A stretch of DNA of 64,000 nucleotides from Cellulophaga sp. Hel_I_12. GTDB lineage: Bacteria; Bacteroidota; Bacteroidia; Flavobacteriales; Flavobacteriaceae. Positions 23,106 to 63,722 of this stretch are shown one piece after another (the first letter of the stretch is position 1; each line of letters starts with the position of its first letter). The translations under genes and the position numbers were made by a program. The stretch lies in contig NZ_JUHB01000001.1 of NCBI RefSeq assembly GCF_000799565.1, positions 3,661,501 to 3,725,500 on the forward strand, read 5' to 3'. A model generated the notes under the pieces. The model ran no database searches. It saw nothing but the letters and a program-made list of their open reading frames with translations, and was not told the origin of the DNA.

Positions 23106-23134
23106 CTTTTTTAGCGGTAGTGCTTCAATTGTCG

Positions 23135-48716: not shown

Positions 48717-48853
48717 TAAACACAACGGTTCGTATAACCGCAGTTACGGGTTAATATGCGTTAATTTTCGGTTTAGCACAGACGTTAGCAATTCCAAGTG
48801 GATTCGGACGTAGTCGAATCCGCCGTAATTGCGGTTATACATTGTTGTAGTGC
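48717..48853 (-). repeat. attC-like site 1 (cassettes A/B), short class
   Basis: 137 bp. Left terminus TAAACACAAC (leader of A), right terminus GTTGTAGTGC (tail of B). Inner arms GTATAACCGCAGTTACGG / CCGTAATTGCGGTTATAC; internal hairpin GGATTCGG / CCGAATCC-type. Confidence 0.85.
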
Positions 48854-48859
48854 GTTTTT

Positions 48860-49459
48860 TCATTTTTCAGATAACAGTTTTACAATATTCTGGCGATATT
48901 CCTCATCCTTTTCATTCAATTCGACAGTTCCGTTTTTTAAGTCAGGATTTAGATAGAATTCAGCGTATAGATTTTGCTCATTGTTGTCGTCAAAAAACAG
49001 CTTAAATTTAAATCGACCATTTTCTAAAGTTGCGTTTTCTCGGTTTAAAGGAAATATTGTGAAAGTCAGTTTTTCGGTCGAGAATTTCGTTTGTTTAGGT
49101 TGTCCGTAAAGTTTAGAAATTATACCTATTAGCTTATCGCTTTCAGTTCCGATTGATTGTATTTTAATCCCGTTTTCTACAAATCTGGTATTATCAATCT
49201 CATTATTCACGATTCCAGCTGGAATTCCGTCCGCAATATTGATTTTTAGTCCAACAATCTGATTTTCATATTTTGCTTTACAAGTCAAACTCCAAAATCC
49301 ATTGTCTATTTTTTCCTTTTTAGTGATTGTGAAAATTAAATCTTGCCAACCTTCTTCAGCGTCTTGATTTGAAGTCAGTTCAATTAGATTTTTGTTTTGA
49401 CTAAATCCGAAAACGCTACTTAAAATTCCCATTATTAATATCAGTTTCTTGATTTTCAT
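48860..49459 (-). CDS. Secreted protein of unknown function (cassette B)
   Basis: 199 aa with a signal peptide (MKIKKLILIMGILSSVFGFS). The mature part is predicted mostly beta (FWSLTCKAKYENQIVGLKI; GRFKFKLFFDDNNEQNLYA) and ends with a charged tail. No family recognised. The IS481-type element is inserted in its 5' leader, so it has probably lost contact with any upstream promoter. Confidence 0.7.
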   Translation of the reverse strand: MKIKKLILIMGILSSVFGFSQNKNLIELTSNQDAEEGWQDLIFTITKKEKIDNGFWSLTCKAKYENQIVGLKINIADGIPAGIVNNEIDNTRFVENGIKIQSIGTESDKLIGIISKLYGQPKQTKFSTEKLTFTIFPLNRENATLENGRFKFKLFFDDNNEQNLYAEFYLNPDLKNGTVELNEKDEEYRQNIVKLLSEK

Positions 49460-49475
49460 TAGGTTGCTCTCAAAT

Positions 49476-50787
49476 GTTCGTTAAGGCACATAGTTTACAC
49501 AAGTTAAAGATTAGGGTTTACACTAAATTAGTTTCTAGCCTTGTTGCTTGTTGTTTATTTCTTAAATACTTTTCATCAAAGAAACCTAAAAATACGTTTC
49601 TATAAAATACCCTCCAAATACCATTACCCATTTCTTGAATACCTATGTATTTCCCTGTTAAAGCTGCGGTTACATATACCCAATAATAAGATTTCCATCT
49701 GATAGATCCATTTTGAGTTACTTTAAGCACTTTGTATTGCGCATCGTAATCAAAGTTAGGTATTTTTTCAAGGAATGGTCTAGTAGAAAAATCATGTATA
49801 GCAGCAGGAGTTTTCATGTCTAATGCTTCATGTGGTCTTATGTGATTATATTCCTTTACAAAGTGATTTAAACGCCTTTGCTGGGCTTTTAAATCATAAG
49901 CCGAGGGTTTGGCACAAGCTGCTTTTAAATCTCGATGCATGCGTTCATGTCTTCCGTTTTGTTCCGGATGAGCAGGGTCTGAAAAAACAGGTGTAATACC
50001 CAGCTCAATAAACCAATACGAGAGCTGCGTAAAGCGTTGAATGGTACGTACAGAACCAAAGGGACTACCGTTGTCTGTGTGTATTTGTTTAGGGATGCCA
50101 AAGGTTCTAAAGACCCTTGTAAATTCAGCCTTAGCAGACTTTAGGTTTTCATGATAATGGCCTTTGGCGGTAAATAGAAATCGACTTTTAGAGTCAGCAA
50201 TAGTAAGTGGATGACAATAGATTTTATTGCCCATTAAAAACTTTCCTTTATAGTCCGCACTCCATACTTCATTACACTCTTTTGGGTCGAAAATAGGGTA
50301 TACCGGTTTAACTCTTCGCATCCTTTTTTGCGGGCATACTAAACCGTTTTTCTTTAGGATGTTGTGAATTGTAACCACAGAAGGCACTTCTTGTTTTGTA
50401 AACTCGTTAAACAACAATTCCTTAATTTTTTTTGCTCCCCAATGCTTGTGTTTTTTCTTTAGTTTTAGAATACCATCAACGATATTTTGATTGGTTGCAT
50501 TAGGGTGTTTTCCTGGAGCTCTGGACTGTTCTCTTAAGGCTTCAAAACCTTGTTTTTCGAACCTGCTGATCAACTTATAAGCCGTTGGTCTAGAGATTTC
50601 AAAACTTTTGCATAATTCCGTAATGGTGTATTTTCCAGTCCGCCATTCACAAATAAATTCAATTTTTTGTTCCATAGTTGTTGTTTCTTTCCAAGGCATA
50701 ATTTCTGAGTTTTATTCAGAAAATTAGTCTTTAAAAGTGTAAACTATGTGCCTTTAAATTTGTAAAGGATGTCCCTTTAACGTACCC
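49476..50787 (-). mobile_element. IS481-family insertion sequence in the leader of cassette B
   Basis: About 1.3 kb. Imperfect inverted ends of about 25 bp: GTTCGTTAAGGCACATAG then TTTACA at the left; complement of TGTAAAGGATGTCCCTTTAA then CGTAC at the right. A possible target duplication CAAAT lies at 49471-49475 and 50787-50791. Removing it joins the cassette terminus GTTGTAGTGC to ATTTG and the gene leader. Confidence 0.85.
49518..50699 (-). CDS. IS481-family transposase
   Basis: 393 aa, intact. N-terminal HTH (KYTITELCKSFEISRPTAYK), then the rve DDE core with D in VWSADYKGKF, D in HTDNGSPFG and E in QNGRHERMH (about residues 165-275), followed by HIRPHEALDMKTPA and a C-terminal beta-rich extension. 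Complete reading frame, so the element may be active. A relic of one end of the same element lies at 14240. Confidence 0.93.
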   Translation of the reverse strand: MPWKETTTMEQKIEFICEWRTGKYTITELCKSFEISRPTAYKLISRFEKQGFEALREQSRAPGKHPNATNQNIVDGILKLKKKHKHWGAKKIKELLFNEFTKQEVPSVVTIHNILKKNGLVCPQKRMRRVKPVYPIFDPKECNEVWSADYKGKFLMGNKIYCHPLTIADSKSRFLFTAKGHYHENLKSAKAEFTRVFRTFGIPKQIHTDNGSPFGSVRTIQRFTQLSYWFIELGITPVFSDPAHPEQNGRHERMHRDLKAACAKPSAYDLKAQQRRLNHFVKEYNHIRPHEALDMKTPAAIHDFSTRPFLEKIPNFDYDAQYKVLKVTQNGSIRWKSYYWVYVTAALTGKYIGIQEMGNGIWRVFYRNVFLGFFDEKYLRNKQQATRLETNLV

Positions 50788-50791
50788 AAAT

Positions 50792-50926
50792 GCACTACAA
50801 CGTTTAGTATAAGAATAGTAGACGACTTCGTGGCACTTTCCTATCAAGTTACAAGAAAGTCGAAGCGGACTACAACCCCTGAATTTACTACTGTCTCGGC
50901 TATTATTTTTATATATTGTTGTGTGT
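50792..50926 (-). repeat. attC-like site 2 (cassettes B/C), short class
   Basis: 135 bp. Left terminus GCACTACAAC (leader of B), right terminus GTTGTGTGT (tail of C). Internal hairpin CTTTCCTATCAAGTTACAAG with GAAAG pairing. Confidence 0.85.
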
Positions 50927-50933
50927 TCGTGCT

Positions 50934-52547
50934 TTATTTCAATTCTTGTCCTTTTATTAATCTTACGATATTCTCTTTCGTGTCTATATTTGGTTCAATT
51001 TCTTTTAAGTGTCTTATTTCTTTCTCAATTTCTGACGACCAATTTTCTAGTTTCCACTTATCCAAAACTTTGATTGCCATATTTCTATTTCTTGTTACTG
51101 GGCTTTTAAGAGCTGTCATAATAATCTTCTCTCCTTTTTTGGGATAATTCTCCAAAAAGGTAGTTGCATTCTCAAGACTGGCATGCTTATCGTAATTATC
51201 ACCAAATCCATTCGAATCTTTTACTCCTGACGCTAACTCATCAATGGGTAAATGTCTAAGCGCAAAGTCTATAATTTTGTCCGAATGTACAGGAGAACTA
51301 TAGTGTGTAACATCATACCAAGCTGAACTGTCAAGTGGATTTTCTTCCAGCTTTGCCCAAACAGTTTCCCATAAATCAATTCCTAATTTCTCAGATGCTT
51401 GCTTTGCATTCCAATAAATCACATTGTCCTTGCTTTTCAATCCTTCATATGCAACAACTTTCCATTCTTTGCTTTTTAAAATTCCAACAATTTCAATTAT
51501 ACAGTTTGAAATTATATCATGATTCCAACCGTTTTTCTTTTGCTCTCCAATATCGTTTTGTAACTCAGTAAGAAAGTCTTTAATTTTATGTAAAGCATTA
51601 AAGTCTGAAATGTCGGTCGTGTGTGTTTTTGAATGCCTTATGAAGTGGTGAATTACTTGTGCAGCAAAAGAATAAGTAGTAATATCTTCGGCAGGACTAT
51701 GCTCCACGATAAGTGCTTCAATAATGTCAGAAGCTGATTTATAAAGTTTGTGTTCAATTTTTCCGCTTTCTATTTTTTTATGTAATTCACCATTGACTGC
51801 ACAAGTGTAAGCCAAATATTCGTACATAATATTGTTTTTATAACCATCTGATATTAACCAATCTTTTATTGGCTCACTCGATTCTGGATTTGCTAATCTG
51901 TCGACCAATTGAATTTTCCCCCAACCATCTACTTTTCGAGCTAATTCCCAAAGGTCATTTTCAGCATTGTCAGATAAATTGGCAATTGCAATCGATGAAT
52001 AAACGGTAAATTCATCGTGCAATCCTAGAATTTTTATATCGTTAAGAATAGATTTATTTTGACACAACCCCAAAATCGCAATCCCGAACTTTACAGCGTT
52101 TCTTTTATTAGTCTTCGTTGCTAAATCTTTTGCATAATTGAACAGATAAGGTTTAATAGATAATGCTTCATTTGCGACTGTCTGCAAAAACTCGTCAATA
52201 ATTCCAATTACACCTTCATTTTCAGTAATTAATCTATAAAACTCTTGTTCGCTTATTTTGTCTCCATTTTTCGCAATTTTTTTTAAGTGCTTTGTAAGTT
52301 CAACAATTCTCTTTTTAGAATCACCTGAATCATCTGCCCCAAACATTGCATCCATAAGTCCAGGAGCAAACCTTATATTCTCATCCTCTTTTTTTTCATC
52401 AGGCAGGTCATTTGTTGTTTCTGCTAAATTGCCATTATTGTCTAAGCGAGAAGATAGAAATTTGAGAATAGAATTTTTTGTTCTCCATTCTCTAACCTCT
52501 ATTGTCGGTTTTGAATCAAATATGTCTTGTAACCACTTTTTAATCAT
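50934..52547 (-). CDS. HEAT-like repeat protein of unknown function (cassette C)
   Basis: 537 aa from the ATG at 52547 (MIKKWLQDIF), which lies 22 nt inside the cassette; a longer in-frame start lies in the site itself and is unlikely. All-helical with regular 35-45 residue units (VYSSIAIANLSDNAENDLWE; WELARKVDGWGKIQLVDRLA; ENATTFLENYPKKGEKIIMT), which suggests an alpha-solenoid. No catalytic motif seen. One of the longest genes of the array. Confidence 0.75.
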   Translation of the reverse strand: MIKKWLQDIFDSKPTIEVREWRTKNSILKFLSSRLDNNGNLAETTNDLPDEKKEDENIRFAPGLMDAMFGADDSGDSKKRIVELTKHLKKIAKNGDKISEQEFYRLITENEGVIGIIDEFLQTVANEALSIKPYLFNYAKDLATKTNKRNAVKFGIAILGLCQNKSILNDIKILGLHDEFTVYSSIAIANLSDNAENDLWELARKVDGWGKIQLVDRLANPESSEPIKDWLISDGYKNNIMYEYLAYTCAVNGELHKKIESGKIEHKLYKSASDIIEALIVEHSPAEDITTYSFAAQVIHHFIRHSKTHTTDISDFNALHKIKDFLTELQNDIGEQKKNGWNHDIISNCIIEIVGILKSKEWKVVAYEGLKSKDNVIYWNAKQASEKLGIDLWETVWAKLEENPLDSSAWYDVTHYSSPVHSDKIIDFALRHLPIDELASGVKDSNGFGDNYDKHASLENATTFLENYPKKGEKIIMTALKSPVTRNRNMAIKVLDKWKLENWSSEIEKEIRHLKEIEPNIDTKENIVRLIKGQELK

Positions 52548-52568
52548 TGGCACTGTCTTTTTTGCATT

Positions 52569-52769
52569 ACACACAACGTTTGGGCTATGATTAGTGCGGG
52601 GCAGAAATCCGACGGATTTCCAACTAAGCACTAAGCAAAAGCAGTTTTTTTTGTTTTAATTTTTAGCTTTCAAAGCAAAATCAAACTGATTTTGCGCACT
52701 TTATAAATATACTCAAAGCACTGAACTAAACACCAAAGCCCGCATTAATTATAGCCGTTGTTGGGCACA
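52569..52769 (-). repeat. attC-like site 3 (cassettes C/D), long class
   Basis: 201 bp. Left terminus ACACACAAC (leader of C), right terminus GTTGGGCACA (tail of D). Two internal hairpins (GGAAATCC-type; CAAAATCAAACTGATTTTG). Confidence 0.85.
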
Positions 52770-52783
52770 GGTTTTTTATTTGT

Positions 52784-53344
52784 TTAGTGCAAATTCAATT
52801 GATTGTTCGCAGAGCGCTTAAATAGCATGCTCGATAAATAAAACAGAAAAGCAAAAAATCCGCTTAATAAAAAAACTCCAGTCACACTTGGTGACCATGA
52901 AATTTCTGATGGTGGCCAAATAATTATTGCTATCATTGGTACCATCATTTGAACAACAGATGCAACTAATAAAGTTTTTGACATTCCTTTGGCCTTAAAT
53001 CGAGAAATCAGAGCACCTACCAGACCTACCAAAAAAACTGCCCCAAACAAAAGATTGGCATCTTGGTTTTCACTGCCTATAATTCCCACAGCACCATTCA
53101 CCCAAAATAGCAAAAAGGCACCCAAAAGTCCTATTACAAAAGCAATTTTATAGGTGGTTTTTTTTGATTTTATCGAGACAATTTCATAGGCGATTCCTAT
53201 TCCGATCAATACAATTCCCATTATTAAGAAATCGGTCAAGTCCCAGTTTATTTCATCAGTAAATCTCATTGCAATAAACGGAATTAGTAAAGTGCAAATC
53301 ACAAAGACAATCCAACCAACAAGTCTTTTAGTATCTAAAATCAT
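52784..53344 (-). CDS. Membrane protein of unknown function (cassette D)
   Basis: 186 aa with six membrane helices in three hairpins (LVGWIVFVICTLLIPFIA; FLIMGIVLIGIGIAYEI; IAFVIGLLGAFLLFWV and three more). No conserved polar motif and no recognised family. The start lies about 57 nt after the cassette terminus. Confidence 0.7.
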   Translation of the reverse strand: MILDTKRLVGWIVFVICTLLIPFIAMRFTDEINWDLTDFLIMGIVLIGIGIAYEIVSIKSKKTTYKIAFVIGLLGAFLLFWVNGAVGIIGSENQDANLLFGAVFLVGLVGALISRFKAKGMSKTLLVASVVQMMVPMIAIIIWPPSEISWSPSVTGVFLLSGFFAFLFYLSSMLFKRSANNQLNLH

Positions 53345-53400
53345 ATTCTAATTTAATGATTTTAACTCATTTTTCATAAACTTTCCATTTTCAGTTTACT

Positions 53401-53537
53401 TGTGCCCAACGTTTATGTATAAGAATAGTTGCGGGTTTGTATGCGAGGATTTTCCGAAGGAAAATCAGATGTTACAAACACGCAACGACCTTTGGCTAAG
53501 CACTAAACCGCAATTATTTTTATACGGTGTTGTGCTT
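53401..53537 (-). repeat. attC-like site 4 (cassettes D/E), short class
   Basis: 137 bp. Left terminus TGTGCCCAAC (leader of D), right terminus GTTGTGCTT (tail of E). Internal hairpin GATTTTCC-GAA-GGAAAATC. The 3' end of the cassette E gene runs into the site. Confidence 0.85.
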
Positions 53538-53955
53538 TCGTACTTTATTCTCATATGTTCTTCTGGACCGAAACGGTCAAAAACAAAGTGCACTATTTTA
53601 ATTCCATTAATTGACCATTCATAGTTGTCAAATCCATCATTCCCTTTCGATTTTCCAGTTGGATTTCCAAATGCTTTTTCAAAATGAGATTGGAAGTCAT
53701 CGAATGATTTTATTTGGTCGCTATAATCTGTTCTAAAGAATTCTAACTCATTTAAAAATCCTTTTTTCCTCGGTTCAAAGTGAAATCCGATTAAGCATTG
53801 CAATCCGTTAAGTGATTCACAAGAGATTGAGTAATATCCAGCCGTCACATTTTTCAATTCCGTTTCCTTAAATAATTCAACGAGTTCTTTCTCGTTATAT
53901 TCCAAGGAATAAATACATTCGGATTATCTATTTTAAAACCTTTTTCTATTTCCAT
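53465..53955 (-). pseudogene. Small unknown protein gene, frameshifted near its 5' end (cassette E)
   Basis: The expected start is the ATG at 53955 (MEIEKGFKIDNPNVFIPWNI), which lies 19 nt after the cassette terminus; the frame then breaks at AATATAACGAG, and the remaining protein continues in another frame from about 53905 as NEKELVELFKETELKNVTAG. One missing base explains it. The rest (GYYSISCESLNGLQCLIGF; EWSINGIKIVHFVFD) has no breaks, so loss is recent, or translation restarts at the TTG at 53905. The final about 22 codons lie in the recombination site. Family not named. Confidence 0.65.
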
Positions 53956-53973
53956 TCTTGGTTTTCAGGTATG

Positions 53974-54109
53974 AAGCACAACGTTTAGTATAACCGCAGT
54001 TACGGGATTAAATTTAATGTTTTTCGGATAAGCACCGACGGTAGCAATTACGCGTGGATTTGGACGCAGTCGAATCCGCCGTAATTGCGGTTATACAGTG
54101 TTGCCAGTA
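53974..54109 (-). repeat. attC-like site 5 (cassettes E/F), short class
   Basis: 136 bp. Left terminus AAGCACAAC (leader of E), right terminus GTTGCCAGTA (tail of F). Inner sequence close to sites 1 and 13. Confidence 0.85.
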
Positions 54110-54113
54110 GTTT

Positions 54114-54641
54114 TTATTTATAGATGTATTTTTCAAACTCCGATTTGTCTATTTTTTCCATTTCGCCATTTGATTTTTCGAGAAAGTATTCAAACGATTT
54201 TTTGTTATAGTCAAATTTCGACCAAGCAAAAGTCTTTTCGATACTGTCGTTTTGATAATAGTCAGTTTCTGATTTAGCGTTTAATAATCCGAACTCAATT
54301 ACCTTCTTGAAATGTCCAATTCGAGGTTCTGGCTTCCACCAATAAGTGGCGAATTGGTCAGATTCATATTTATTTTTTTCCCAATCTTTTTCAATTGTTG
54401 GAATCCCGAAGTTTTTCCGTTCAGAGTTAAATTCAATTCCATAATTCTTTTTTAGTGGAATTATGTGTTTTGATCCTTCTTTTAACCCAACAAATAAGAG
54501 TATAGCAAGAAGTACAGCTCCAACGGCTCTTATAGATTTTGTAAAATCTGTTGGATTTTTTTTGTAATCTTTACGATAAGCGAAAAATATCACTAACGGA
54601 ACAAACAAAAGTCCGATTATTATGTAGATACTATAGTTCAT
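54114..54641 (-). CDS. Membrane protein of unknown function (cassette F)
   Basis: 175 aa. Two N-terminal membrane helices (IYIIIGLLFVPLVIFFAY; AVGAVLLAILLFVGL) and a soluble C-terminal domain of about 115 residues, probably extracytoplasmic (WWKPEPRIGHFKKVIEF; FAWSKFDYNKKSFEYFLEK). No family recognised. Fits its cassette tightly: start 8 bp after one terminus, stop 4 bp before the other. Confidence 0.7.
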   Translation of the reverse strand: MNYSIYIIIGLLFVPLVIFFAYRKDYKKNPTDFTKSIRAVGAVLLAILLFVGLKEGSKHIIPLKKNYGIEFNSERKNFGIPTIEKDWEKNKYESDQFATYWWKPEPRIGHFKKVIEFGLLNAKSETDYYQNDSIEKTFAWSKFDYNKKSFEYFLEKSNGEMEKIDKSEFEKYIYK

Positions 54642-54648
54642 TTTAAAT

Positions 54649-54785
54649 TACTGGCAACGGTTGGGCTATGGTTTCGTTGCGTGAAAATCCGCAAGGATTT
54701 TCCGTCGTAAACCGAAGATAGCAAATTTGCGAGGACTTTCTGCTAGGAAAGTCAGAAGCAATGAACTATAGCCGTTGTTACCTGC
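54649..54785 (-). repeat. attC-like site 6 (cassettes F/G), short class
   Basis: 137 bp. Left terminus TACTGGCAAC (leader of F), right terminus GTTACCTGC (tail of G). Two internal hairpins: GAAAATCC / GGATTTTC and GACTTTC / GAAAGTC. Confidence 0.85.
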
Positions 54786-54799
54786 TTGCTTTTTAAATT

Positions 54800-55333
54800 T
54801 TAAAACCCAAAATTAACACCAAGGTTAATTGATGATGAATTATCTTCATTCTCACTAATTGATGTATATGAAAGCGCTAGGTCTAACTTTTCTTTTACTT
54901 TATATGCAAATAAAGGTCTAAAGTAAAACCCTCCAGTTTCCTCATCTATAAAACTACCATCACTATCACCAAACCCATTGGCATTTAGAGCATAACCAAT
55001 ATCCAATCCTATATAAAATAACTCTGAAAGCTTTACTCTGGATGCCATTGCAATAGGAATAAACACATCTGGAATTGAACTAAATAATCCACCTGAGCCA
55101 TCAGCATTATTGCCTTCACCTAGAAATACAAGTGCACCCGTAGTTGCTCCTATATAAATATCATCTGATACACTCCACAAATATTGAAAATCAGCTTGAA
55201 GTGTATATGAGAAATATTCACTTGAATCTCCTAAAGTTGGACCAACACTAATACCTATTCTAAACCCTTCTTGTGCATTTATTGAAGAAATAAACAAGAA
55301 GGTCAATACGATAAAACTTAATTTTTTTTTCAT
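54800..55333 (-). CDS. Outer-membrane beta-barrel protein (cassette G)
   Basis: 177 aa. Signal peptide (LSFIVLTFLFISSINAQ), then about eight amphipathic strands (FRIGISVGPTLGDSS; YTLQADFQYLWSVSDDIYIG; LFYIGLDIGYALNANGFGD) and a final strand SINLGVNFGF with terminal Phe, the usual outer-membrane insertion signal. Small barrel of unknown role. Cassette G. Confidence 0.8.
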   Translation of the reverse strand: MKKKLSFIVLTFLFISSINAQEGFRIGISVGPTLGDSSEYFSYTLQADFQYLWSVSDDIYIGATTGALVFLGEGNNADGSGGLFSSIPDVFIPIAMASRVKLSELFYIGLDIGYALNANGFGDSDGSFIDEETGGFYFRPLFAYKVKEKLDLALSYTSISENEDNSSSINLGVNFGF

Positions 55334-55392
55334 AATAAGCTAGTTTTAGTTGTGTATATTAAAATTTGACTAGTTTTCTGTTTTTACTGCTT

Positions 55393-55527
55393 GCAGGTAA
55401 CGGTTAGTATATGAAAAGTTGCGTGTAGATAGGCGCAATTTTTTCGATTTAGTACTGACTTTAAATATATGAAAAACCCAATGAATTAAGCACTTACCAG
55501 CAATTTTTTATATACATTGTTAGCCAC
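55393..55527 (-). repeat. attC-like site 7 (cassettes G/H), short class
   Basis: 135 bp. Left terminus GCAGGTAAC (leader of G), right terminus GTTAGCCAC (tail of H). Its inner sequence is the closest match to the decayed site at 14299-14430. Confidence 0.85.
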
Positions 55528-55667
55528 TGGCTTTATTCCGTTCTGCTTTTCAATTCCGATATTTTTTGTCAGTTCGGATTGAGCGTTGGCAAGACATACT
55601 CTTTTGCAATTTTGGATGGTGTGTTGGCATTGAGCGAATTGCAAATGCGTATGGCTTTTAGCGTTGG

Positions 55668-56837
55668 CTAATTCTGCGTAGCATTCACTTTTTTCACAAA
55701 TTGTTCCAAAATCATTATATCTGCACGATGTTCTTGGGGGAAACTCGACAAATATGCTTTAGGCACAACTAATTGCACATCATATTGTTTCATTTCTTCA
55801 AGTTGATTTTTAGAAATTCCTTGTTGTAATGTAAATAAATGTTTGGTCTTAATTCTGTCCGCTTCATTCAAAATCTGTCGCCAACGGTCTTTACAAGTCG
55901 TTTTAGATGCTAACAATATTAGCTTCCCATTGTCAAATTCCGGATTGTTATATGCCTCTATATTCGGAAAAAGAAAATCTGGTTTTTTATTATTCTCGGT
56001 GGTAACTTGAGTTTGAAAAATTAGTTCAGAAATGCGAAAGACTTCTTCCAAGTGATGCTCAAGAGATTTACCTGCCCGACTTTTACGTCTATTGAGGATA
56101 GTATTTGCGGAAATTACTAAATTCTCAACTGATGTAAATGGTTTTTTAATCAACTCTGAATAGCGGTCATTTTCCAATGTTTTGAATAAGTCATACTCTG
56201 CTTCAAGCCATTTAAGAATTTCTTTATCAGGATTTGATTTTATATAATTTGTAGTGATTCCATACGAGTTTAGATAGCAATTACGAGAATTTGATGCTAT
56301 ATCCAAAGTCGGTGGAAAGTCAACTTTAAGAGTTTTGATATATTTTAGAAAACACTCAACAAGACTATCTTCTGCGGTTTGCTCTAATTGTTTAGGAATT
56401 ATTCCATTTGTTTCTGTGGAAGAAATATTTAGTGATGCAAAAAAATCTTCAATGTCCTCGTCACTACTTAACACAAAAGCCTCAAAGTAGGTTTTTGATT
56501 TCTTACAAAGCACTAATAAATCGCCAACATTGTCATCTGTTAAAAAAGGGAAATCTCTACCAAAACGTGTCAGACGATATTCATTACGTGTTCCTGTTCC
56601 ATAATAGATAAATCTACTTGAAGTTTCAAAATCATCTTGCCATTTAATTGTTGCAAAAAGGTCTTTGTTGTTGCCTTTTTGTCCTTCTGTTTCAAAGAAT
56701 AAAGGCCACGAATTTTTGTGCAAATGAAAACCAGCTTGATGACCACCAGTTGAGCCTGTGTCATTAGGTTTAATGAATTTACTAAATGCTATTTCAGACT
56801 GTTGCGCTGATTGGATTGCCTTTTCTACTATACTCAT
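55668..56837 (-). CDS. EcoRII-like type II restriction endonuclease (cassette H)
   Basis: 389 aa, near the EcoRII length. N-terminal effector-type domain about 1-150 ([40 protein letters not shown]), then a PD-(D/E)xK nuclease domain of the EcoRII-C type: [31 protein letters not shown] and [20 protein letters not shown], very close to EcoRII. The recognition site may be CCWGG or a relative, inferred from family only. Overlaps the methyltransferase gene by 44 bp. Confidence 0.9.
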
Positions 56838-58035
56838 CTATTTTTGAAAGTTCTTTTACAATGTTTTTGGCAACTGCTTGAAATAAAGGTGATACAACGG
56901 AATTGCCAAATTGTTTGTATGCTTGATTATCTGATACTGGAATTATGAAACTATCAGGAAACCCTTGAAGTCTTGCGCATTCTCTTGGTGTCAATCTTCG
57001 TGGATTTTTACCTTTTTGAGGTATTAAGATTTCTGCGCCATCTTTGTAATAACGGGCGCTCATTGTCCTAGATATTCCATTGAGGTCAGTTAAACCAAAT
57101 CCAAATCCGTTTCCTTTTGCTTTGTGTTTTTTCTTATATTCTTGAAGGTAATTCCAAAGTTTATCTGAAAGTGTATATTTTGGGTCCACTTTAGGTTCAA
57201 GAATGTCTTTGATTGCGTAAGTCTCGTTTGTTGGTTCTGGAAATTTAAAGGTTTCTTTGCCTTTAAACACAGATTTTTTAAAACCTACAATTACAATTCT
57301 TTCTCGATGTTGAGGAACGTAATTTTGACCGTCTAAAATTTTATAGTGAAGATTGTAACCTAATTCACTTAAGGTTTCTGTTATGACCTTAAACGTTTTT
57401 TTCTTATCGTGCGAAACAAGATTTTTGACATTTTCCAACATAAAAACCGAAGGTTTTTTATATTCTAAAATTCTTGCAATGTCAAAAAATAATGTTCCTT
57501 GGGTTTTGTCTAAAAAACCGTGCGCTCTACCTAAAGCATTTTTTTTGGAAACCCCTGCAATTGAAAAGGGTTGGCAGGGAAAACCACCAAGTAAAATATC
57601 GTGGTCTGGAATGTCTTTTTCGGAAATTTCTGTGATGTCGCCAAATGGAACTTCTCCAAAATTAGCTTCGTAAGTTTTTTTTGAATAAGCATCCCATTCA
57701 CTTGTAAAAACGCACTTTCCACCATTGTTTTGATAAGCCATTCTCAATCCGCCAATTCCTGCGAAAAGGTCAATAAACTTAAATTTTGGTTCCGTTTGTG
57801 GTGGAAAAGGGATATCCCATTTTATTGGCAAGTAATATTGAAAATCAGGTTCTTCAACTATGTTTAATTTTTGGTGTAGTTCGGTTAGATATTCTTTTGC
57901 AGTTGGCTGAAAATATTGGGAAACACCATTTTTGTGATTTTGAAAATAATGTGTTAAATGGGCTAAATCGTTGTCGGTTTTTTTGTCAACAACAATTTGA
58001 AGTTTGTCCTTTATTTTTGAATATCGTTTGTCCAT
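56794..58035 (-). CDS. C5-cytosine DNA methyltransferase (cassette H)
   Basis: 413 aa. Motif [18 protein letters not shown], motif [14 protein letters not shown] with catalytic Cys, motif [10 protein letters not shown], motif [14 protein letters not shown], motif [20 protein letters not shown] and motif [10 protein letters not shown] are all present in order. A target-recognition region of about 75 residues sits between VIII and IX. An N-terminal extension of about 80 residues precedes motif I, as in EcoRII methylase. It protects host DNA from the overlapping downstream nuclease. A 215-bp leader with a TTGACAAG segment may carry its own promoter. Confidence 0.95.
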
Positions 58036-58250
58036 AGTTATCTGTAAAGAACGTAAAAATTAGGCAAAATTTCCAGGTTTCTGTTTCAAATTCTTAACAA
58101 TCTTGTCAACGTGATTTTGAGCGCAAAAGCGAAAACAGCTCTTTTATTTTTTTGAGCGTGGGCTTTGAGCGTTGGGAAAAAATAAATGTGCTGTTTGTGT
58201 GGTGGCTTTTCCGATAAATTTTGTCTGAAGTTCGGATTTTTTTTCAGCTT
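58036..58250 (-). promoter_or_regulatory. Long leader of the restriction-modification cassette
   Basis: About 215 bp between the cassette terminus and the methyltransferase ATG; other cassettes mostly have 4-60 bp. It contains CCAACGCTCAAAGCCCACGC, and GCCAACGCT(C/A)A words recur in the cassette tail (55580-55670). A minus-strand TTGACAAG followed by an AT-rich stretch could be a promoter, which would allow expression at any place in the array. Confidence 0.4.
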
Positions 58251-58386
58251 GTGGCTAACGGTCAAGTATAAGCGTAGTGCGGGATTAGAAGCACTTCACT
58301 TTCGGTTTAACCTTATGTTTATTAATATTCAATTTGTTTAAATTTAGCACTTTAGCCCGCATTACGCTTATACAATGTTGTATGCC
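58251..58386 (-). repeat. attC-like site 8 (cassettes H/I), short class
   Basis: 136 bp. Left terminus GTGGCTAAC (leader of H), right terminus GTTGTATGCC (tail of I). Outer arms AAGTATAAGCGTAGTGCGGG and CCCGCATTACGCTTATAC. Confidence 0.85.
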
Positions 58387-58394
58387 GTATTTTT

Positions 58395-59663
58395 TCATTC
58401 TTTCTCCATTTGTGAACTTATAAAAGGTATTCTCGGAGCTAAAAAATAGCCTGTCAAACTTGCAAATAAGATTGGGATAAAATGTCTAAACCCTGTCAAT
58501 GTTGCAAGTAAAATGGTTGTACTCATTGGTGTTCGGGTTACGCAAGCGTTAATTGCTGCCATACAGCTAACTATCGCTAATGTCAAATTTATTGTCGGAA
58601 ATAGTTGATGGATAATTAGTCCTAACGTAGCTCCTACGAAAAACAGCGGAATAATAAATCCACCTCTCCAACCTGATGTTACTGTTATTGAGATGGCTAT
58701 AATTTTAAAAATCAAAATAGCAAACAATAAAGTCAATGGAAAATTCCCTGAAAGTAGTTCGTTAATTTCGTGATGTCCAAAATATCGGGTTAATGGAAAG
58801 TAAAATGCTATGATGCCAAGTAGAATTCCACCAATTAGCGTTTTGATGTAAATTGGTATGGGTTTTTTCTCGAAAATTGATTTGAAAAATTTGGTGCAAA
58901 AAATAAAAGCCCAACCAAAGGCTGCTCCGATTATTGCAAAGAGAACTGCATAGCCAAAATCAAAAATCCCTGAATATTCATAAGCAGATAAATCCCAAAT
59001 AGGACCAAGTCCCAAATGAATGATTAAGGCGAAAACTAAATAGCTAAAGCAACTTGCAACAAACGCAGGAATAATTGCTTTGTAATACTCAACTGCGTGT
59101 TTGTGATGAAGAATTTCTAATGAAAAGAGGCTGCCGCCCAATGGGGCACCAAATAAAGCTGTAAATCCTGAAGCCATTCCTGCGATACTTAACGACCTTA
59201 ATTCTTCTCCTTTTAGTCGAAACAATTTTCCTATCCAAGTTCCTGTTGAGCCTGTTACTTGAACCAATGGCGCTTCGGGTCCGAGACTTCCACCTGACGC
59301 AACGCATAGCAATGAAGAGAGAACCATTGAAGGATTGTTTTTAGGGTCAAGTTTTCCTTTATTAAATCGGATATTGTTTACAATCAAATGTATTTCGCCT
59401 GGGTCTCCAATGAAATGAATTATCAAACCTGCTAAAAGTCCGCAAATCGCCATTACAGGTATTACTTCCCAACCACTAAAAAAAGCTAATTGATGAGTTA
59501 GAAACTCAAGTCCAATCCAATAAGCTCCTGCAATTACTCCACCTATCAATCCAAGTAAAGCCCATAACAAAAAAGTCCGACTGAAAACGAAAGGATTAAA
59601 TCGGACAGGTTGGTCTAAAATATTTAAATATGTTACTAGTTTTCTTCTTCGTTTTAATTTCAC
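58395..59663 (-). CDS. ClC-family chloride channel/transporter (cassette I)
   Basis: 422 aa with about ten to twelve membrane helices. ClC motifs: GGSLGPEAPLVQVTGS (selectivity filter, G-x-x-P), GMASGFTALFGAPLGG then SLFSLE, and SGWRGGFIIPLFFVGA. There is no C-terminal CBS domain. The start is GTG at 59663. An integral transport protein in a cassette is large for this array, and it fits its cassette closely (stop 8 bp from the terminus). Confidence 0.9.
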   Translation of the reverse strand: MKLKRRRKLVTYLNILDQPVRFNPFVFSRTFLLWALLGLIGGVIAGAYWIGLEFLTHQLAFFSGWEVIPVMAICGLLAGLIIHFIGDPGEIHLIVNNIRFNKGKLDPKNNPSMVLSSLLCVASGGSLGPEAPLVQVTGSTGTWIGKLFRLKGEELRSLSIAGMASGFTALFGAPLGGSLFSLEILHHKHAVEYYKAIIPAFVASCFSYLVFALIIHLGLGPIWDLSAYEYSGIFDFGYAVLFAIIGAAFGWAFIFCTKFFKSIFEKKPIPIYIKTLIGGILLGIIAFYFPLTRYFGHHEINELLSGNFPLTLLFAILIFKIIAISITVTSGWRGGFIIPLFFVGATLGLIIHQLFPTINLTLAIVSCMAAINACVTRTPMSTTILLATLTGFRHFIPILFASLTGYFLAPRIPFISSQMEKE

Positions 59664-59684
59664 TGTTTCGTTTCTGTTTTATAT

Positions 59685-59888
59685 GGCATACAACGGCTCG
59701 TATATGAAAAGTAGCGCTGAAAATATGCGTTAACTTTTCGGATTATACCCAAGCCAAATTTTTAAATTAACTAATTATTTTATCTTTGGGAATTTGTCAA
59801 ATTTAAAAATTTGGCGACTTTCCAAAAATGCACAAACCATCGTTTTAGCAATGAATTGCGCTATTTTTTATATACATTGTTATACCAC
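59685..59888 (-). repeat. attC-like site 9 (cassettes I/J), long class
   Basis: 204 bp. Left terminus GGCATACAAC (leader of I), right terminus GTTATACCAC (tail of J). Internal hairpin AATTTGTCAAATTTAAAAAT with TTGGC. The stop codon of the protease gene is inside the right terminus. Confidence 0.85.
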
Positions 59889-60716
59889 GTTATTTCTTGC
59901 TATGTCAGCAGTAATTGATTCAGTTATTTTGTCAACAGTTTCGACATTTGCGAGACCAGAATTTTCCTCAAAAGTAATTCTTGCTTTACCCGTTTGTTGG
60001 CTAATCGCAACATCTGTATATGGAATATAACTTTTAACTATTCCAATTAACGCTGCCTTATTCATCACTTTAGTTCCTTGAATAAAACTTGCCTCTGGTT
60101 TTATAATTACTGGACCACCACTATTACCTGGGAAAACTAAAGAGTCTACTGTGAATGAATTATTTCTATTTTCGAAAACATCTCGAATCCTTGCAATTAT
60201 CCCTCCTCTTACTATAACGTGTTGACGGTCAGAAGGCATCATTCCCATTGGATAACCAAGAACATAAATAAAATCTCCTTCACTTACTCCTTCATCAATC
60301 ATATTTTGTTTTGTAAGTATATCAGATTGTGATTTGAAATATGAAAATTTCATACCAGCATCAATTAGCATTTGCGCATTTAGTCCAATAACGGCAACAT
60401 CAACTTGAGGGTTTTGATGCCCTGTCCAAACATATGTTCCATCTGCTTTTTTTAATGCAAGAGGGAAATCAGTAGCAGCTTGTCCATTTTGAGGATTGAA
60501 TCTTAATATGATGTTTTCTTGATTATTTAAAACGTGTTTATTTGTGACAAGATGTATTTTATAATCAGATTTTGTAGGGTCATCAGCATTAACATTTTGA
60601 AATGTTCCATATATAAAACCAGTTCCAATCCATTGCTTTCGAATTGCTGCATCAGTTCCAGTTTGTTTTCCAATTGCAATTACAGTATCTATAAAAAAAG
60701 GTGGTATTAATGCCAT
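59880..60716 (-). CDS. Trypsin-like serine peptidase (cassette J)
   Basis: 278 aa, no signal peptide. Trypsin-like triad: His in LVTNKHVLNN near residue 57, Asp in VDVAVIGL near 105, Ser in FPGNSGGPVII near 200. The N-terminus (IDTVIAIGKQ) starts directly with the fold, so the enzyme is probably cytoplasmic, and may act in stress or defence like other stand-alone trypsin-like effectors. The final codons GTG GTA TAA are cassette terminus sequence. Confidence 0.88.
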   Translation of the reverse strand: MALIPPFFIDTVIAIGKQTGTDAAIRKQWIGTGFIYGTFQNVNADDPTKSDYKIHLVTNKHVLNNQENIILRFNPQNGQAATDFPLALKKADGTYVWTGHQNPQVDVAVIGLNAQMLIDAGMKFSYFKSQSDILTKQNMIDEGVSEGDFIYVLGYPMGMMPSDRQHVIVRGGIIARIRDVFENRNNSFTVDSLVFPGNSGGPVIIKPEASFIQGTKVMNKAALIGIVKSYIPYTDVAISQQTGKARITFEENSGLANVETVDKITESITADIARNNVV

Positions 60717-60730
60717 AGTTTTCTTCTAAT

Positions 60731-60933
60731 GTGGTATAACGGTTTAGCTATGCGTAGTGCGGAGGCAAGGAAACCATTTCGTTTCCGTCTGAGTACGAAG
60801 CTAAAGCTTATTGTTTTGATTTGTTTTTTTCTATTCTAAAGCTAAATCCATAAGATTTAGCGACTTTATAAGTATACACAGACCTTTTATTTAGCCCTAA
60901 AGTCCGCATTGCGTATAGGTTTTGTTGGCAAAC
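60731..60933 (-). repeat. attC-like site 10 (cassettes J/K), long class
   Basis: 203 bp. Left terminus GTGGTATAAC (leader of J), right terminus GTTGGCAAAC (tail of K). Internal hairpins GGAAAC / GTTTCC and CTAAATCCATAAGATTTAG. Confidence 0.85.
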
Positions 60934-60965
60934 GGAGTTTCCCTTCAGATTGGCACGTAACTATT

Positions 60966-61379
60966 TCAATCCAAAACTCCCTTATTCTTTTCATTTGGTT
61001 CTAGTAAATCCCACATATTACCATACAAGTCCACAAAAACTGCAACCATTCCATAGTCCATTTGTTCCGGTGGTCTTATAAATTTTATTTCTTTATCTAC
61101 CATTTTGTTATAATCTCTCCAAAAATCATCTGTAAATAGAAATAGAAAAACTCGACCACCTGATTGGTTACCAATGCTCGCAGTTTGTTGTCCATTTGTA
61201 GCTTTTGAAAGCAATAAACAACATTCTTTTGCTCCATTAGGGGCAACCATAACCCACCGTTTTTCCTCCGTCAGTTTGGTGTCCTCAATTAGTTCGAAGT
61301 CCAATTTTTTGGTGTAAAATTCGATAGCTTCATCATATTCCTTTACAACTAATGCAATATGTGCAATCCTTTGTTTCAA
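60966..61379 (-). CDS. VOC/glyoxalase-family protein (cassette K)
   Basis: 137 aa. One vicinal-oxygen-chelate domain: RIAHIALVVKEYDEAIEFYT at the N-terminus, LDFELIEDTKL, VFLFLFTDDFWRDYNKMV, and MVAVFVDLYGNMWDLLEPN at the end (metal-ligand His and Glu are in HIALVV and DLLEPN). The likely start is TTG at 61379, because longer in-frame starts lie in the recombination site and no ATG is in frame. Related to dioxygenase/resistance-type proteins; substrate unknown. Confidence 0.85.
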   Translation of the reverse strand: MKQRIAHIALVVKEYDEAIEFYTKKLDFELIEDTKLTEEKRWVMVAPNGAKECCLLLSKATNGQQTASIGNQSGGRVFLFLFTDDFWRDYNKMVDKEIKFIRPPEQMDYGMVAVFVDLYGNMWDLLEPNEKNKGVLD

Positions 61380-61417
61380 TCGTGAGTTTTTAGTCCATTT
61401 GTAATTTTTTCCACTAT

Positions 61418-61621
61418 GTTTGCCAACGTTCAAGCTATGAGTAGTGCGGAGGCAAGGAATCCTTTTTTTTGCGTCTGCGCACGTAGCCAAAGCATTTTGT
61501 TTGCGTTTTATTTTTTATGCTTTAAATGCCAAATCAAACTGATTTGGCGACCTTAAAAATATACACAAACCATTGAAATTAGCACTAAAATCCGCATTAC
61601 TTATAGGTATTGTTGTAAGTA
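61418..61621 (-). repeat. attC-like site 11 (cassettes K/L), long class
   Basis: 204 bp. Left terminus GTTTGCCAAC (leader of K), right terminus GTTGTAAGTA (tail of L). Internal hairpin CCAAATCAAACTGATTTGG. The last codons of the cassette L gene are inside. Confidence 0.85.
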
Positions 61622-62269
61622 GTCTTTCCTTATTTGTATTTCTTCAAATCTTTCCTTTGGCACATCTTTAATATCAAGTTCTTTAAAATACTTTTCAATT
61701 AGGGTTTGAGTTTCAATTGCCTTTCTTGGTTGATTAGAAATGATATAAAAGTCAAATATTTTTGCTGCGTGTATCCATCTTTCTTCTTTAAACAAGTAGT
61801 CAGCTGCACTTTCCCAATCAGATATTTTATTTAGTATTGGAACACCAATATTCAAAATGTTTTTGGTCAGGTCAGTCATTAGTTTAACATTGTCAAATTT
61901 TGTCAAATCATAATGTCCACCATCCCAAAATTTTGAATTCCAAGTCTTAATATCATTATCATACCAAGAATCTACAAATTCATTCATTGGTTTAAAACCA
62001 TAAGTCTTTTCGTGCCATTTCACATAAAAATTAGATTTTACCGATAATATTATCCAAAATGAAACCACAGTATTACCAAAATTCCAGCGATTTTTTGAAA
62101 AGTGAATTTCTTGAGTAAATTCCCCTATTTTTCGCTTAAAAGTCAATTCCGATTTCAAAAGTTTAAATCCAAGTTTGGTCATTTCAGGCTCAACGAATTC
62201 TTCGATTAATTTCCGAATTCTGTCTCTTGGTGAAAGTTCAGTGTATTTGAATTTTTTTCTTTTGAACAT
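61601..62269 (-). CDS. DUF4304-like protein (cassette L)
   Basis: 222 aa, cytoplasmic. IRKLIEEFVEPEMTKLGFKL, LTFKRKIGEFTQEIHFSKNR and WNFGNTVVSFWIILSV resemble DUF4304 proteins; the C-terminal about 70 residues are helical. The last codons (DYLQQYL, stop) lie in the cassette terminus TACTTACAAC and just beyond it, so integration context determines the 3' end of the gene. Function unknown. Confidence 0.7.
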   Translation of the reverse strand: MFKRKKFKYTELSPRDRIRKLIEEFVEPEMTKLGFKLLKSELTFKRKIGEFTQEIHFSKNRWNFGNTVVSFWIILSVKSNFYVKWHEKTYGFKPMNEFVDSWYDNDIKTWNSKFWDGGHYDLTKFDNVKLMTDLTKNILNIGVPILNKISDWESAADYLFKEERWIHAAKIFDFYIISNQPRKAIETQTLIEKYFKELDIKDVPKERFEEIQIRKDYLQQYL

Positions 62270-62283
62270 TAGTTATTCAAGAT

Positions 62284-62422
62284 TACTTACAACGAGTTTT
62301 TATAAGATTTGTGCGACTGGAAAATCGGAGATTTTTCGGTGGTAGCAAATCGATTGTTGAATGTTTGTCGGTTCGTTATTTAGTTTAAAAGTAAGCATAA
62401 ATTTTATGAGGTGTTGTACCAC
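62284..62422 (-). repeat. attC-like site 12 (cassettes L/M), short class
   Basis: 139 bp. Left terminus TACTTACAAC (leader of L), right terminus GTTGTACCAC (tail of M). The most divergent site; internal hairpin GAAAATC / GATTTTTC-type around GGAAAATCGGAGATTTTTCG. Confidence 0.8.
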
Positions 62423-62426
62423 GTTT

Positions 62427-62906
62427 TTATTTTTTAATCAATTCCTTTATCGTTAGAATATCAGTCAGTTTATTAATTCCTGTGTTTGATATAAAACGAA
62501 AACTTAATTCTATAAATACAAATCTTACAAATACAATTCCCATAATCATTGGAATAATTATTTCGAGTGATTTTTCAATTCCGTTAGTAAAAAGAATAAT
62601 TCCAAATCCGATAATTGGCAATAGCATTAAAATCGAAAACATCACTTTAAATGCTTTATGAATTCGAACTTCTATTTCTCCAGTTTTTCCCTCAAATTTT
62701 CCAATCAAAACACATACTGCTCCACGACCTATTTCAGACGATATTATTTTGAATCCGTTATCATTTATTTGTCCACGAAATGCTTTATCTGTCCAGTCAG
62801 AAGTTAGTGATTCAGTAATATCAGTATTTGATTTTAAGTTTTGCATTGAGATTGAATAATCACTTCTCAATTCTGCTTTAAAATATTTATTTGGGAACAA
62901 TTTCAT
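62427..62906 (-). CDS. Membrane protein of unknown function (cassette M)
   Basis: 159 aa. A soluble N-terminal half with a beta-rich profile (FKIISSEIGRGAVCVLIGKF; GKTGEIEVRIHKAFK) and two membrane helices (VMFSILMLLPIIGFGIILF; EIIIPMIMGIVFVRFVFI). No family recognised. Start 25 nt after the terminus, stop 4 bp before the other. Confidence 0.7.
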   Translation of the reverse strand: MKLFPNKYFKAELRSDYSISMQNLKSNTDITESLTSDWTDKAFRGQINDNGFKIISSEIGRGAVCVLIGKFEGKTGEIEVRIHKAFKVMFSILMLLPIIGFGIILFTNGIEKSLEIIIPMIMGIVFVRFVFIELSFRFISNTGINKLTDILTIKELIKK

Positions 62907-62931
62907 TTAGTTCGTGTTGATTTTTTCAAAT

Positions 62932-63070
62932 GTGGTACAACGGTCTCGTATAACCGTCAGTTACGGGTTAAAATTAAACAATCTTTCGGCAGAGACCGAC
63001 GGAAGCAATTCCGCGTGGATTCGGACGTAGTCGAATCCGCCGTAATTGCGGTTATACATTGTTGTAAGTA
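62932..63070 (-). repeat. attC-like site 13 (cassettes M/N), short class
   Basis: 139 bp. Left terminus GTGGTACAAC (leader of M), right terminus GTTGTAAGTA (tail of N). Inner sequence close to sites 1 and 5. Confidence 0.85.
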
Positions 63071-63516
63071 GTTTTTTTTCTTTCCGCTACTAATTCGGTC
63101 AATTTGTTAAGTTTATCTTGGTCAATTTTTTTCCAATCAGCTTTTTTAAATTCCAACGTATTGAACTTTTTTAAACTCCGGTACATTGGTAAAATCACAG
63201 ACTCAAAATCTCCAGTCAGTTTATAAATCAGATTTCGGTTTTCTGTTATTCCTCCACTTTTTGAAATATTCAGCTCAATTTCTTTTCCGTGTTGCTTTAG
63301 TTCAAAGACATAAAATTCAGGTTCCAAATTCCAGCATATTTCCGTTTCGATTGCGTTTATTGCTAAAATCAGAGATTCGCAAAGTTTGTCAGTCGGATTT
63401 TCAGGAATATTTGACGCATTAAATTCCAATTCAAAATCCGTTGACTTTAATTCAATTGGAAGCCATCCACTTTTCGGATTCCCTAAATTCAGTTCTATTT
63501 TCGTTTTTTTGGTCAA
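63052..63516 (-). CDS. Small protein of unknown function (cassette N)
   Basis: 154 aa. Start is TTG at 63516, only 2 nt after the terminus; no ATG is suitably placed. It is cytoplasmic, with mixed alpha/beta profile (LELNLGNPKSGWLPIEL-type N-terminus; LILAINAIETEICWNLEPE; YVFELKQHGKEIELNISK). The last codons (YNNV, TAA) are site sequence. Not recognised. Its termini are the same as those of cassette L. Confidence 0.65.
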   Translation of the reverse strand: MTKKTKIELNLGNPKSGWLPIELKSTDFELEFNASNIPENPTDKLCESLILAINAIETEICWNLEPEFYVFELKQHGKEIELNISKSGGITENRNLIYKLTGDFESVILPMYRSLKKFNTLEFKKADWKKIDQDKLNKLTELVAERKKTTYNNV

Positions 63517-63518
63517 AT

Positions 63519-63722
63519 TACTTACAACGTCTCGGCTATGGCAAGTAGGGCAGGCAAGGAAACTTTTCGTTTCCGTCTGGTCTGCGAGCCAGAGCTTTTT
63601 GTTTTGTAATTATTTTATTTTTTTAATTGCCAAATCCAAAAGATTTGGCGGACTTAATAAATATGTCCAAGCCTTTAAATATATCGCTTTACGCCCTATT
63701 TGCTATAGGCATTGTTAGCAAC
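63519..63722 (-). repeat. attC-like site 14 (cassettes N/O), long class
   Basis: 204 bp. Left terminus TACTTACAAC (leader of N), right terminus GTTAGCAAC (tail of O; its leader is beyond the window). Internal hairpins GGAAACTTTTCGTTTCC and GCCAAATCCAAAAGATTTGGC; contains GGACTTAATAAATATGTCC. Confidence 0.85.

What the first reader, a model, noticed from the sequence alone, without database searches (positions are those of the whole stretch)
48717..63722. Gene cassette array with cassette-specific 9-10 nt inverted termini: integron-like, but not the classical core
Thirteen of thirteen complete cassettes begin and end with matching inverted termini on the plus strand: B 48844/50792 GTTGTAGTGC, C 50918/52569 GTTGTGTGT, D 52760/53401 GTTGGGCACA, E 53529/53974 GTTGTGCTT, F 54100/54649 GTTGCCAGTA, G 54777/55393 GTTACCTGC, H 55519/58251 GTTAGCCAC, I 58377/59685 GTTGTATGCC, J 59879/60731 GTTATACCAC, K 60924/61418 GTTGGCAAAC, L 61612/62284 GTTGTAAGTA, M 62413/62932 GTTGTACCAC, N 63061/63519 GTTGTAAGTA. 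In integrons the cassette start pairs with the 5' end of that cassette's own attC because the site is whole only in the circle; this array shows the same rule. It differs in that only D fits GTTRRRY and pairing reaches 9-10 nt, which suggests a divergent integrase specificity.
Basis: partly seen in the sequence, partly recalled or inferred. Interest (0 to 1): 0.96.

Follow-up and report, generated by a model that had tools for sequence, protein, structure and literature searches.

The report
A second kind of integron
This genome and many of its relatives carry arrays of gene cassettes separated by sites predicted to fold into hairpins, often beside a recombinase that lacks the hallmark domain of integron integrases; this is likely a second kind of integron, predicted to capture and shuffle genes by its own route.

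Summary
All 13 cassettes have the stated inverted termini. Over 132 cassettes from 32 loci these form a 14-bp stem whose 11th pair is G·T in 115 and Watson-Crick in 2. The sites have a covarying 16-bp inner stem with G·T wobbles in one orientation (262 against 22), so one strand folds better in 129 of 132. Two more such arrays in this genome each lie beside a tyrosine recombinase. In 38 of 71 recombinase loci (partly selected) an array lies beside the recombinase, its attI end facing it. That recombinase lacks the IntI insert (Arg-to-HxxR spacing 89, IntI 125-131); 7 of 132 cassettes fit GTTRRRY. Identical cassettes recur in different contexts with breakpoints at AAC. The window's array keeps an attI-like end but no integrase. 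Recombination itself was not observed. Best reading: an integron-like system with another recombinase and another strand mark. Nine searches of an open-licence library listed no earlier report.

The parts
47873..48706 (-). Leftmost cassette A (start not found): two ORFs, DUF4274 protein 47873-48385 and an ORF 48386-48706; its end terminus TAAACACAAC lies at 48717-48726
48724..48846 (+). attC-like site A/B (AAC to GTT; folded strand is +)
48844..50801 (-). Cassette B: ORF 48860-49459 without Pfam match plus an inserted element with an rve-type transposase (49518-50699)
50799..50920 (+). attC-like site B/C
50918..52577 (-). Cassette C, large ORF without Pfam match
52575..52762 (+). attC-like site C/D, long class (182 nt between AAC and GTT)
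52760..53410 (-). Cassette D; a 98.7% identical copy with its left site lies in array 3 next to other neighbours
53408..53531 (+). attC-like site D/E
53529..53982 (-). Cassette E
53980..54102 (+). attC-like site E/F
54100..54658 (-). Cassette F
54656..54779 (+). attC-like site F/G (one extra base in the stem)
54777..55401 (-). Cassette G
55399..55521 (+). attC-like site G/H
55519..58259 (-). Cassette H: EcoRII-type restriction enzyme (55668-56837) and C5-cytosine methylase (56794-58035)
58257..58379 (+). attC-like site H/I
58377..59694 (-). Cassette I: CLC-type chloride channel
59692..59881 (+). attC-like site I/J, long class
59879..60740 (-). Cassette J: trypsin-like peptidase
60738..60926 (+). 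attC-like site J/K, long class
60924..61427 (-). Cassette K: glyoxalase-fold protein
61425..61614 (+). attC-like site K/L, long class
61612..62293 (-). Cassette L: DUF4304 protein
62291..62415 (+). attC-like site L/M
62413..62941 (-). Cassette M
62939..63063 (+). attC-like site M/N (one extra base in the stem)
63061..63528 (-). Cassette N
63526..63716 (+). attC-like site N/O, long class; cassette O and the rest of the array (O, P and two copies of cassette Q) continue outside the window in L017

Best explanation
The array is likely the cassette store of an integron-like gene-capture system in which a Xer-type tyrosine recombinase without the IntI I2 insert would cut one folded strand of each cassette site and so move the cassettes. 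SHOWN: each cassette is a unit of one hairpin-forming site plus, as a rule, one gene; its own two ends pair over 14 bp; genes lie on the strand opposite the better-folding strand; arrays begin at the recombinase gene; a short palindrome or a TATAAC-NN-GTT motif with GTT at the array edge lies just after the recombinase gene in many loci; near-identical cassettes sit in different contexts with breakpoints at AAC. INFERRED: the recombinase makes the cut within the AAC/GTT triplet; incoming circles fold on the strand opposite the genes and enter at the attI-like site next to the recombinase gene; the dyad-placed G.T wobbles, which become A.C mismatches on the other strand, take over the strand choice that extrahelical bases give in classical attC sites. 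The window's own array is an integrase-less copy that keeps the clade-2 attI-like end and could only be served in trans, most likely by the array-3 recombinase.
For: Termini: 13 of 13, 14 of 15 at 9 or more exact bases against at most 7 in 20,000 shuffles; 14-bp stem with G.T at position 11 in 115 of 132 and T at the cassette end in 132 of 132. Inner stem: 98.2% of cells paired against 67.4% shuffled and 29-48% slid, covariation 0.740 against 0.165; G.T with G in the 5' arm 262 against 22, anchor G.T/T-A in 126 of 130 distinct sites; the finder scored both wobble orientations alike. Strand: DNA-parameter folding better for the strand opposite the genes in 129 of 132 (mean -30.6 against -26.4), longest frame on the other strand in 117 of 121. 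Recombinase link: of 42 loci with the N-domain recombinase, 24 have chained sites on its 3' side (146 sites), 0 on the 5' side of the same strand, 2 sites on the other strand in one locus, L082; 7 of 20 loci of recombinases matched only in the core and catalytic part; 7 of 9 further loci, chosen because site and recombinase hits shared a contig. In all 38 the attI end of the main array faces the recombinase, with the recombinase gene co-directional (32) or divergent (6). Controls: 12 of the 14 other tyrosine-recombinase hits of this genome were tested and show 0 chained sites; 12 loci with genuine IntI show 0; 1 chained cassette in 45 shuffled sequences. Co-occurrence in 149 genomes: sites and recombinase 96, sites only 33, recombinase only 5, neither 15, Fisher p 3e-5 (1e-45 cut chosen by me). 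Movement: cassette D, 864 nt at 98.7%, in two arrays; six copies of cassette Q behind six different cassette ends and before different sites. attI-like palindrome in 19 of 28 clade-1 loci against 30 of 560 random windows.
Against: No excision, circle or integration was observed. 33 of 71 recombinase loci show no chained sites (13 of the 18 such N-domain loci have under 2.5 kb of contig on the 3' side, 5 do not: L064, L069, L085, L086, L092), and 33 of 149 genomes have sites but no close recombinase. L168 has 3 of 20 chained sites on the unexpected strand. In six draws the palindrome search found nothing (L068, L070, L074, L079, L082, L083). The I2 helix is held in print to be needed for cassette capture (PMC7790495, passages), and it is absent here, so single-strand recombination by this enzyme contradicts current teaching unless another feature replaces it.
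Confidence: 0.8

Rival explanations
1. The cassettes move, but by ordinary double-strand Xer-type recombination between duplex sites; the hairpin build only reflects two inverted half-sites.
For: The recombinase is closest to XerA in sequence and fold and has Xer-like spacing of catalytic residues (89 against 94 and 96 in the own XerC/D-type proteins). The attI-like palindromes look like two inverted half-sites.
Against: Two perfect inverted half-sites would suffice for duplex recombination; instead G.T is kept in one orientation (262:22; 115 of 132 at R position 11), which has no pairing meaning in duplex DNA, and one strand folds better in 129 of 132. Own-end pairing of each cassette matters only if the site folds.
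Confidence: 0.15
2. It is an ordinary IntI integron whose integrase lost its I2 insert.
For: The recombinase hits the integron-integrase model TIGR02249 with 193.5 and 200.3 bits, below the cut-off of 265; genuine IntI occur in the same phylum (84 of 296 genomes); integrase-toward-array geometry is known from Treponema (PMC3607928, passages).
Against: In a quick tree 12 IntI form one branch (SH-aLRT 100) without any of the 50 array-type recombinases (long branches, so tentative). The insert is missing in 30 of 30 and 19 of 19 measured proteins. GTTRRRY fits 7 of 132. Genuine-IntI loci carry none of these chained sites (0 of 12).
Confidence: 0.1
3. The sites are static intergenic repeats (terminators, REP-like or RNA elements) around genes that do not move.
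For: Hairpins lie after genes; no movement was watched.
Against: Own-start/own-end pairing cannot arise from a dispersed repeat; identical cassettes in different contexts; no Rfam family reached the gathering score in the window; polarity toward a recombinase in 38 loci.
Confidence: 0.03

Closest known systems
IntI integrons (attC/attI cassette platforms), including the Treponema type with intI transcribed toward the array
   Same: Tandem cassettes with genes in one direction, own start pairs with own end, folded strand opposite the genes, AAC/GTT triplet at the breakpoint, attI-like end beside the recombinase gene, integrase-less arrays.
   Different: Recombinase lacks the IntI-specific insert and lies outside the IntI branch; R stem 14 bp with G.T at position 11 instead of a 7-nt GTTRRRY box; inner stem about 16 bp with G.T wobbles; no conserved extrahelical base (2 of 14 window sites have one extra base); palindromic attI-like site.
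Xer / XerA tyrosine recombinases
   Same: Best sequence and fold match (4a8e, 5hxy), catalytic spacing, no I2 insert.
   Different: About 100 extra N-terminal residues in two clades; linked to cassette arrays; the genome has separate Xer-type proteins without arrays.
Phage CTXphi integration by XerCD
   Same: A folded single-strand stem without extrahelical bases used by an I2-less recombinase (as described in PMC4792948, passages).
   Different: CTXphi borrows the host XerCD and carries no cassette array; here a dedicated recombinase lies beside the array.
CALIN (attC clusters without integrase)
   Same: The window's array has sites and no recombinase beside it.
   Different: Its sites are not of the classical attC build.

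Membership tests
IntI integron | Integrase with the IntI-specific additional domain (I2) near patch III (PMC9668308 and PMC7790495, passages) | tested here: not met
   TIGR02249 matched in two stretches with the middle skipped; IntI4 179-248 against 27 residues here; Arg-HxxR spacing 89 in 30 of 30, 89-95 in 19 of 19, IntI 125-131 in 11 of 11 measured
IntI integron | R boxes of the RYYYAAC/GTTRRRY type (recalled consensus; PMC2727003 passages speak of heptanucleotide boxes) | tested here: not met
   7 of 132 cassette starts fit GTTRRRY; GTT/AAC itself is kept (by selection)
IntI integron | Extrahelical bases in the folded bottom strand | tested here: not met
IntI integron | Sites foldable on one preferred strand, opposite the cassette genes | tested here: met
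   129 of 132 and 117 of 121; covariation
IntI integron | Cassette start pairs with the end of the same cassette | tested here: met
IntI integron | attI-like site between integrase gene and array | tested here: met
   By sequence only: 19 of 28 clade-1 loci have the palindrome-GTT; clade-2 loci such as L027, L096 and L094 show TATAAC..GTT
IntI integron | Match to the attC covariance model of IntegronFinder | not testable with these tools
   The model is not in Rfam as searched (no match) and is not on hand
IntI integron | Integrase-dependent excision and integration | not testable with these tools
   Needs an experiment
XerA-type recombinase (NF040815) | Score above the curated cut-off of 220 | tested here: inconclusive
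   Array-2 protein 235.4, array-3 protein 212.6 bits
CALIN | Cluster of sites without a recombinase gene beside it | tested here: met
   Nearest Pfam Phage_integrase hit downstream is at 3,761,708, about 30 kb past the array end, and is not of the array-linked type

The most novel reading that the evidence does not exclude
Bacteroidota hold a second, I2-less kind of integron, invented apart from or before IntI, in which a Xer-type recombinase captures gene cassettes from folded single-stranded DNA and reads a dyad pair of G.T wobbles, instead of protruding bases, to choose the strand.
Probability: 0.45. Interest if true: 0.95.

Novelty: new variant of a known kind. Interest (0 to 1): 0.9.

Why it matters
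Integron theory ties cassette capture to the I2 helix and the extrahelical bases it grips, and names the order of their origin a chicken-and-egg problem (PMC7790495, PMC4792948, passages). A widespread cassette platform lacking both would be either the missing intermediate or a second invention, and can be tested directly. It would also add a gene-capture system in at least 129 of 149 sampled genera of one family by site presence, most of which standard integron screens, which require the IntI domain, would not be expected to report.

Tried and rejected
Rejected: static repeats; Rfam RNA element (nothing); the far recombinases of the same genome as drivers (12 tested loci, 0 chained sites; the two hits near 1,755 kb were not fetched apart). 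The genome-contig scan gave only three loci, two of them relevant, L099 and L100. The first TIGR02249 search of the family was uninformative by itself (0 of 149 at 1e-40, with no control ringing); the phylum search served as positive control (84 of 296 over the cut-off, 0 of the 30 own-family genomes). Relaxed finder settings gave noise on both sides and were dropped. The covariance model misses arrays: G127 has no model hit but 4 chained sites. It was built from 12 sites of the 117-nt class and at most 25 candidates per genome were scored, so counts are floors. The N-terminal domain was not searched alone; the whole-model search spans residues 103-375 only. Tree built by the quick method on 64 rows, 12 N-domain rows left out for length or closeness.

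Papers: passages only of PMC9024848, PMC9668308, PMC8618304, PMC7790495, PMC4792948, PMC6393395, PMC8352920, PMC8565304, PMC3607928, PMC2727003; section 7 and passages of PMC8138268; all others listings only. Searches for an earlier report; subscription journals and preprints are not held, so an earlier report may exist.
Full report
CHECK. All 13 cassettes of the finding start and end with the stated inverted termini. In the window plus L017, 14 of 15 cassettes have 9 or more exactly paired bases; shuffled pairings reached 7 at most in 20,000 trials. The window is G000:C1:3,661,501-3,725,500 of a single 4,031,126-base contig. By the names of the recombinase's closest relatives (Psychroserpens, Winogradskyella, Bizionia and others) and of L099 and L100 the host is likely a member of the Flavobacteriaceae; its name was not given.

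ANATOMY. Between cassettes lie sites of quantised length (mostly 38-39, 62-63, about 117 and about 183 nt between AAC and GTT). An alignment of 21 sites gives a 16-pair inner stem; 12 of 16 pairs show changes on both sides, 98.2% of cells pair against 67.4% in shuffles and 29-48% when slid. One pair is G.T in 21 of 21 and a second in 17 of 21. In a larger set of 130 distinct sites from 25 loci, 126 keep the G.T/T-A anchor, and G.T with G in the 5' arm outnumbers T.G by 262 to 22. The finder asked for 13 of 14 ungapped pairs and scored both wobble orientations alike.

THE OUTER STEM. Over 132 distinct cassettes in 32 loci the own-end pairing covers positions 1-10, stops at 11 and resumes at 12-14 (90, 92, 73%). 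Position 11 is G(start).T(end) in 115, and the cassette end carries T there in 132 of 132. Only positions 1-9 were used for selection. Counted outward from the crossover, the wobbles of the outer and inner halves lie in dyad-related places (my reading). On the other strand each becomes A.C. With DNA energies the strand opposite the genes folds better in 129 of 132 circle-junction models; the longest frame lies on the opposite strand in 117 of 121 cassettes under 4 kb.

LINK OF ARRAY AND RECOMBINASE. Of 42 loci with the N-domain recombinase (2 own, 40 relatives), 24 have chained sites on the 3' side, 146 in all, and none on the 5' side of that strand; the other strand has 2 sites in one locus. 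Eight of the 40 relatives' contigs end within 225 nt of the stop codon, as repeats at an array start would cause. Of 20 loci of recombinases matched only in core and catalytic parts, 7 have arrays, 4 divergent and 3 co-directional. Of 12 loci fetched from the phylum search, 9 hold such a recombinase (8 by script, L179) and 7 of these have arrays, in families f1, f8 and f23; these were chosen because hits lay on one contig. So 38 of 71 loci, and in all 38 the main array begins at the recombinase, whichever way its gene points; 3 of 20 sites in L168 run against this. Controls: 12 other recombinase loci of this genome and 12 genuine IntI loci, 0 chained sites each.

DISTRIBUTION. The site model hits 129 of 149 genomes of the family, one per genus, and 59 of 296 across the phylum, 19 of 30 in the own family and 40 of 266 outside. 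Sites and recombinase (best E under 1e-45) go together: 96, 33, 5, 15 (Fisher p 3e-5); G127, one of the five 'recombinase only', has an array that the model missed. Genuine IntI pass the cut-off in 84 of 296 phylum genomes, none of the 30 own-family ones. One f23 genome, G184, has both a genuine IntI and this system on different contigs.

MOVEMENT. Cassette D with its left site (864 nt, 98.7%) occurs also in array 3 between other neighbours; cassette Q with its short site (471-nt unit) occurs six times behind six different cassette ends; breakpoints lie at AAC. The unit is therefore site plus gene, with the site 3' of the gene, as in integrons. The right end of the window's array carries AGAGATATAACTAGTTG, the same attI-like end as array 3, without the recombinase.

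MECHANISM. Committed reading: an incoming circle folds on the strand opposite its gene; the recombinase binds the two half-sites and exchanges one strand within the AAC/GTT triplet with the attI-like site; replication would resolve the product. Shown: anatomy, polarity, linkage, breakpoints. Inferred: catalysis, strand, replicative resolution, the role of G.T.

KNOWN. In classical attC sites strand choice rests on extrahelical bases (PMC2727003, PMC6393395, passages), gripped by the I2 helix, which is described as needed for capture and found in no other protein (PMC7790495, passages). The integrase-toward-array geometry is known in Treponema (PMC3607928, passages). Smyshlyaev et al. note that the insert is not fully conserved in their integron-like subgroup (PMC8138268, section 7), so relatives of these proteins may already have been classed there. 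It works like an integron; by the tested features it is not an IntI integron.

Noticed in passing
L017:5717-6658 (two copies), L027/L028, L070, L095: A cassette without any ORF over 47 aa is present six times in this genome; cassettes of two other genera share its core TTGANAG..CTNTCAAAACGTTG. The pattern occurs in 3 of 149 genomes, 6, 8 and 3 times. No Rfam match. Perhaps an expressed RNA or promoter cassette.
   Followed up: partly
window 14310-14418 and 23003-23107: Two lone hits of the site model (E 1.4e-10 and 3.6e-7) with degraded AAC or GTT ends, possibly relics of single cassettes.
   Followed up: partly
L025:17253-17642 and L027:11667-12074: A small protein gene with paired-cysteine motifs is divergent from the recombinase in both arrays; no family passes its cut-off.
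   Followed up: no
window 49518-50699; L025:14719-15941: Transposase genes sit inside cassette B and in the recombinase-proximal cassette of array 2.
   Followed up: no
L148, L159, L164, L165, L168, L174: Core-only recombinases with the divergent (classical) gene orientation, while other members are co-directional: the recombinase gene seems to have flipped relative to the array.
   Followed up: partly
window 43581-44615: DUF5712 protein (2e-108) with a weak relaxase match close to the left end of the array; may belong to a mobilisable element.
   Followed up: no
window 55519-58259: A complete EcoRII-like restriction-modification pair forms one cassette; a 91% identical stretch lies in array 2.
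   Followed up: no
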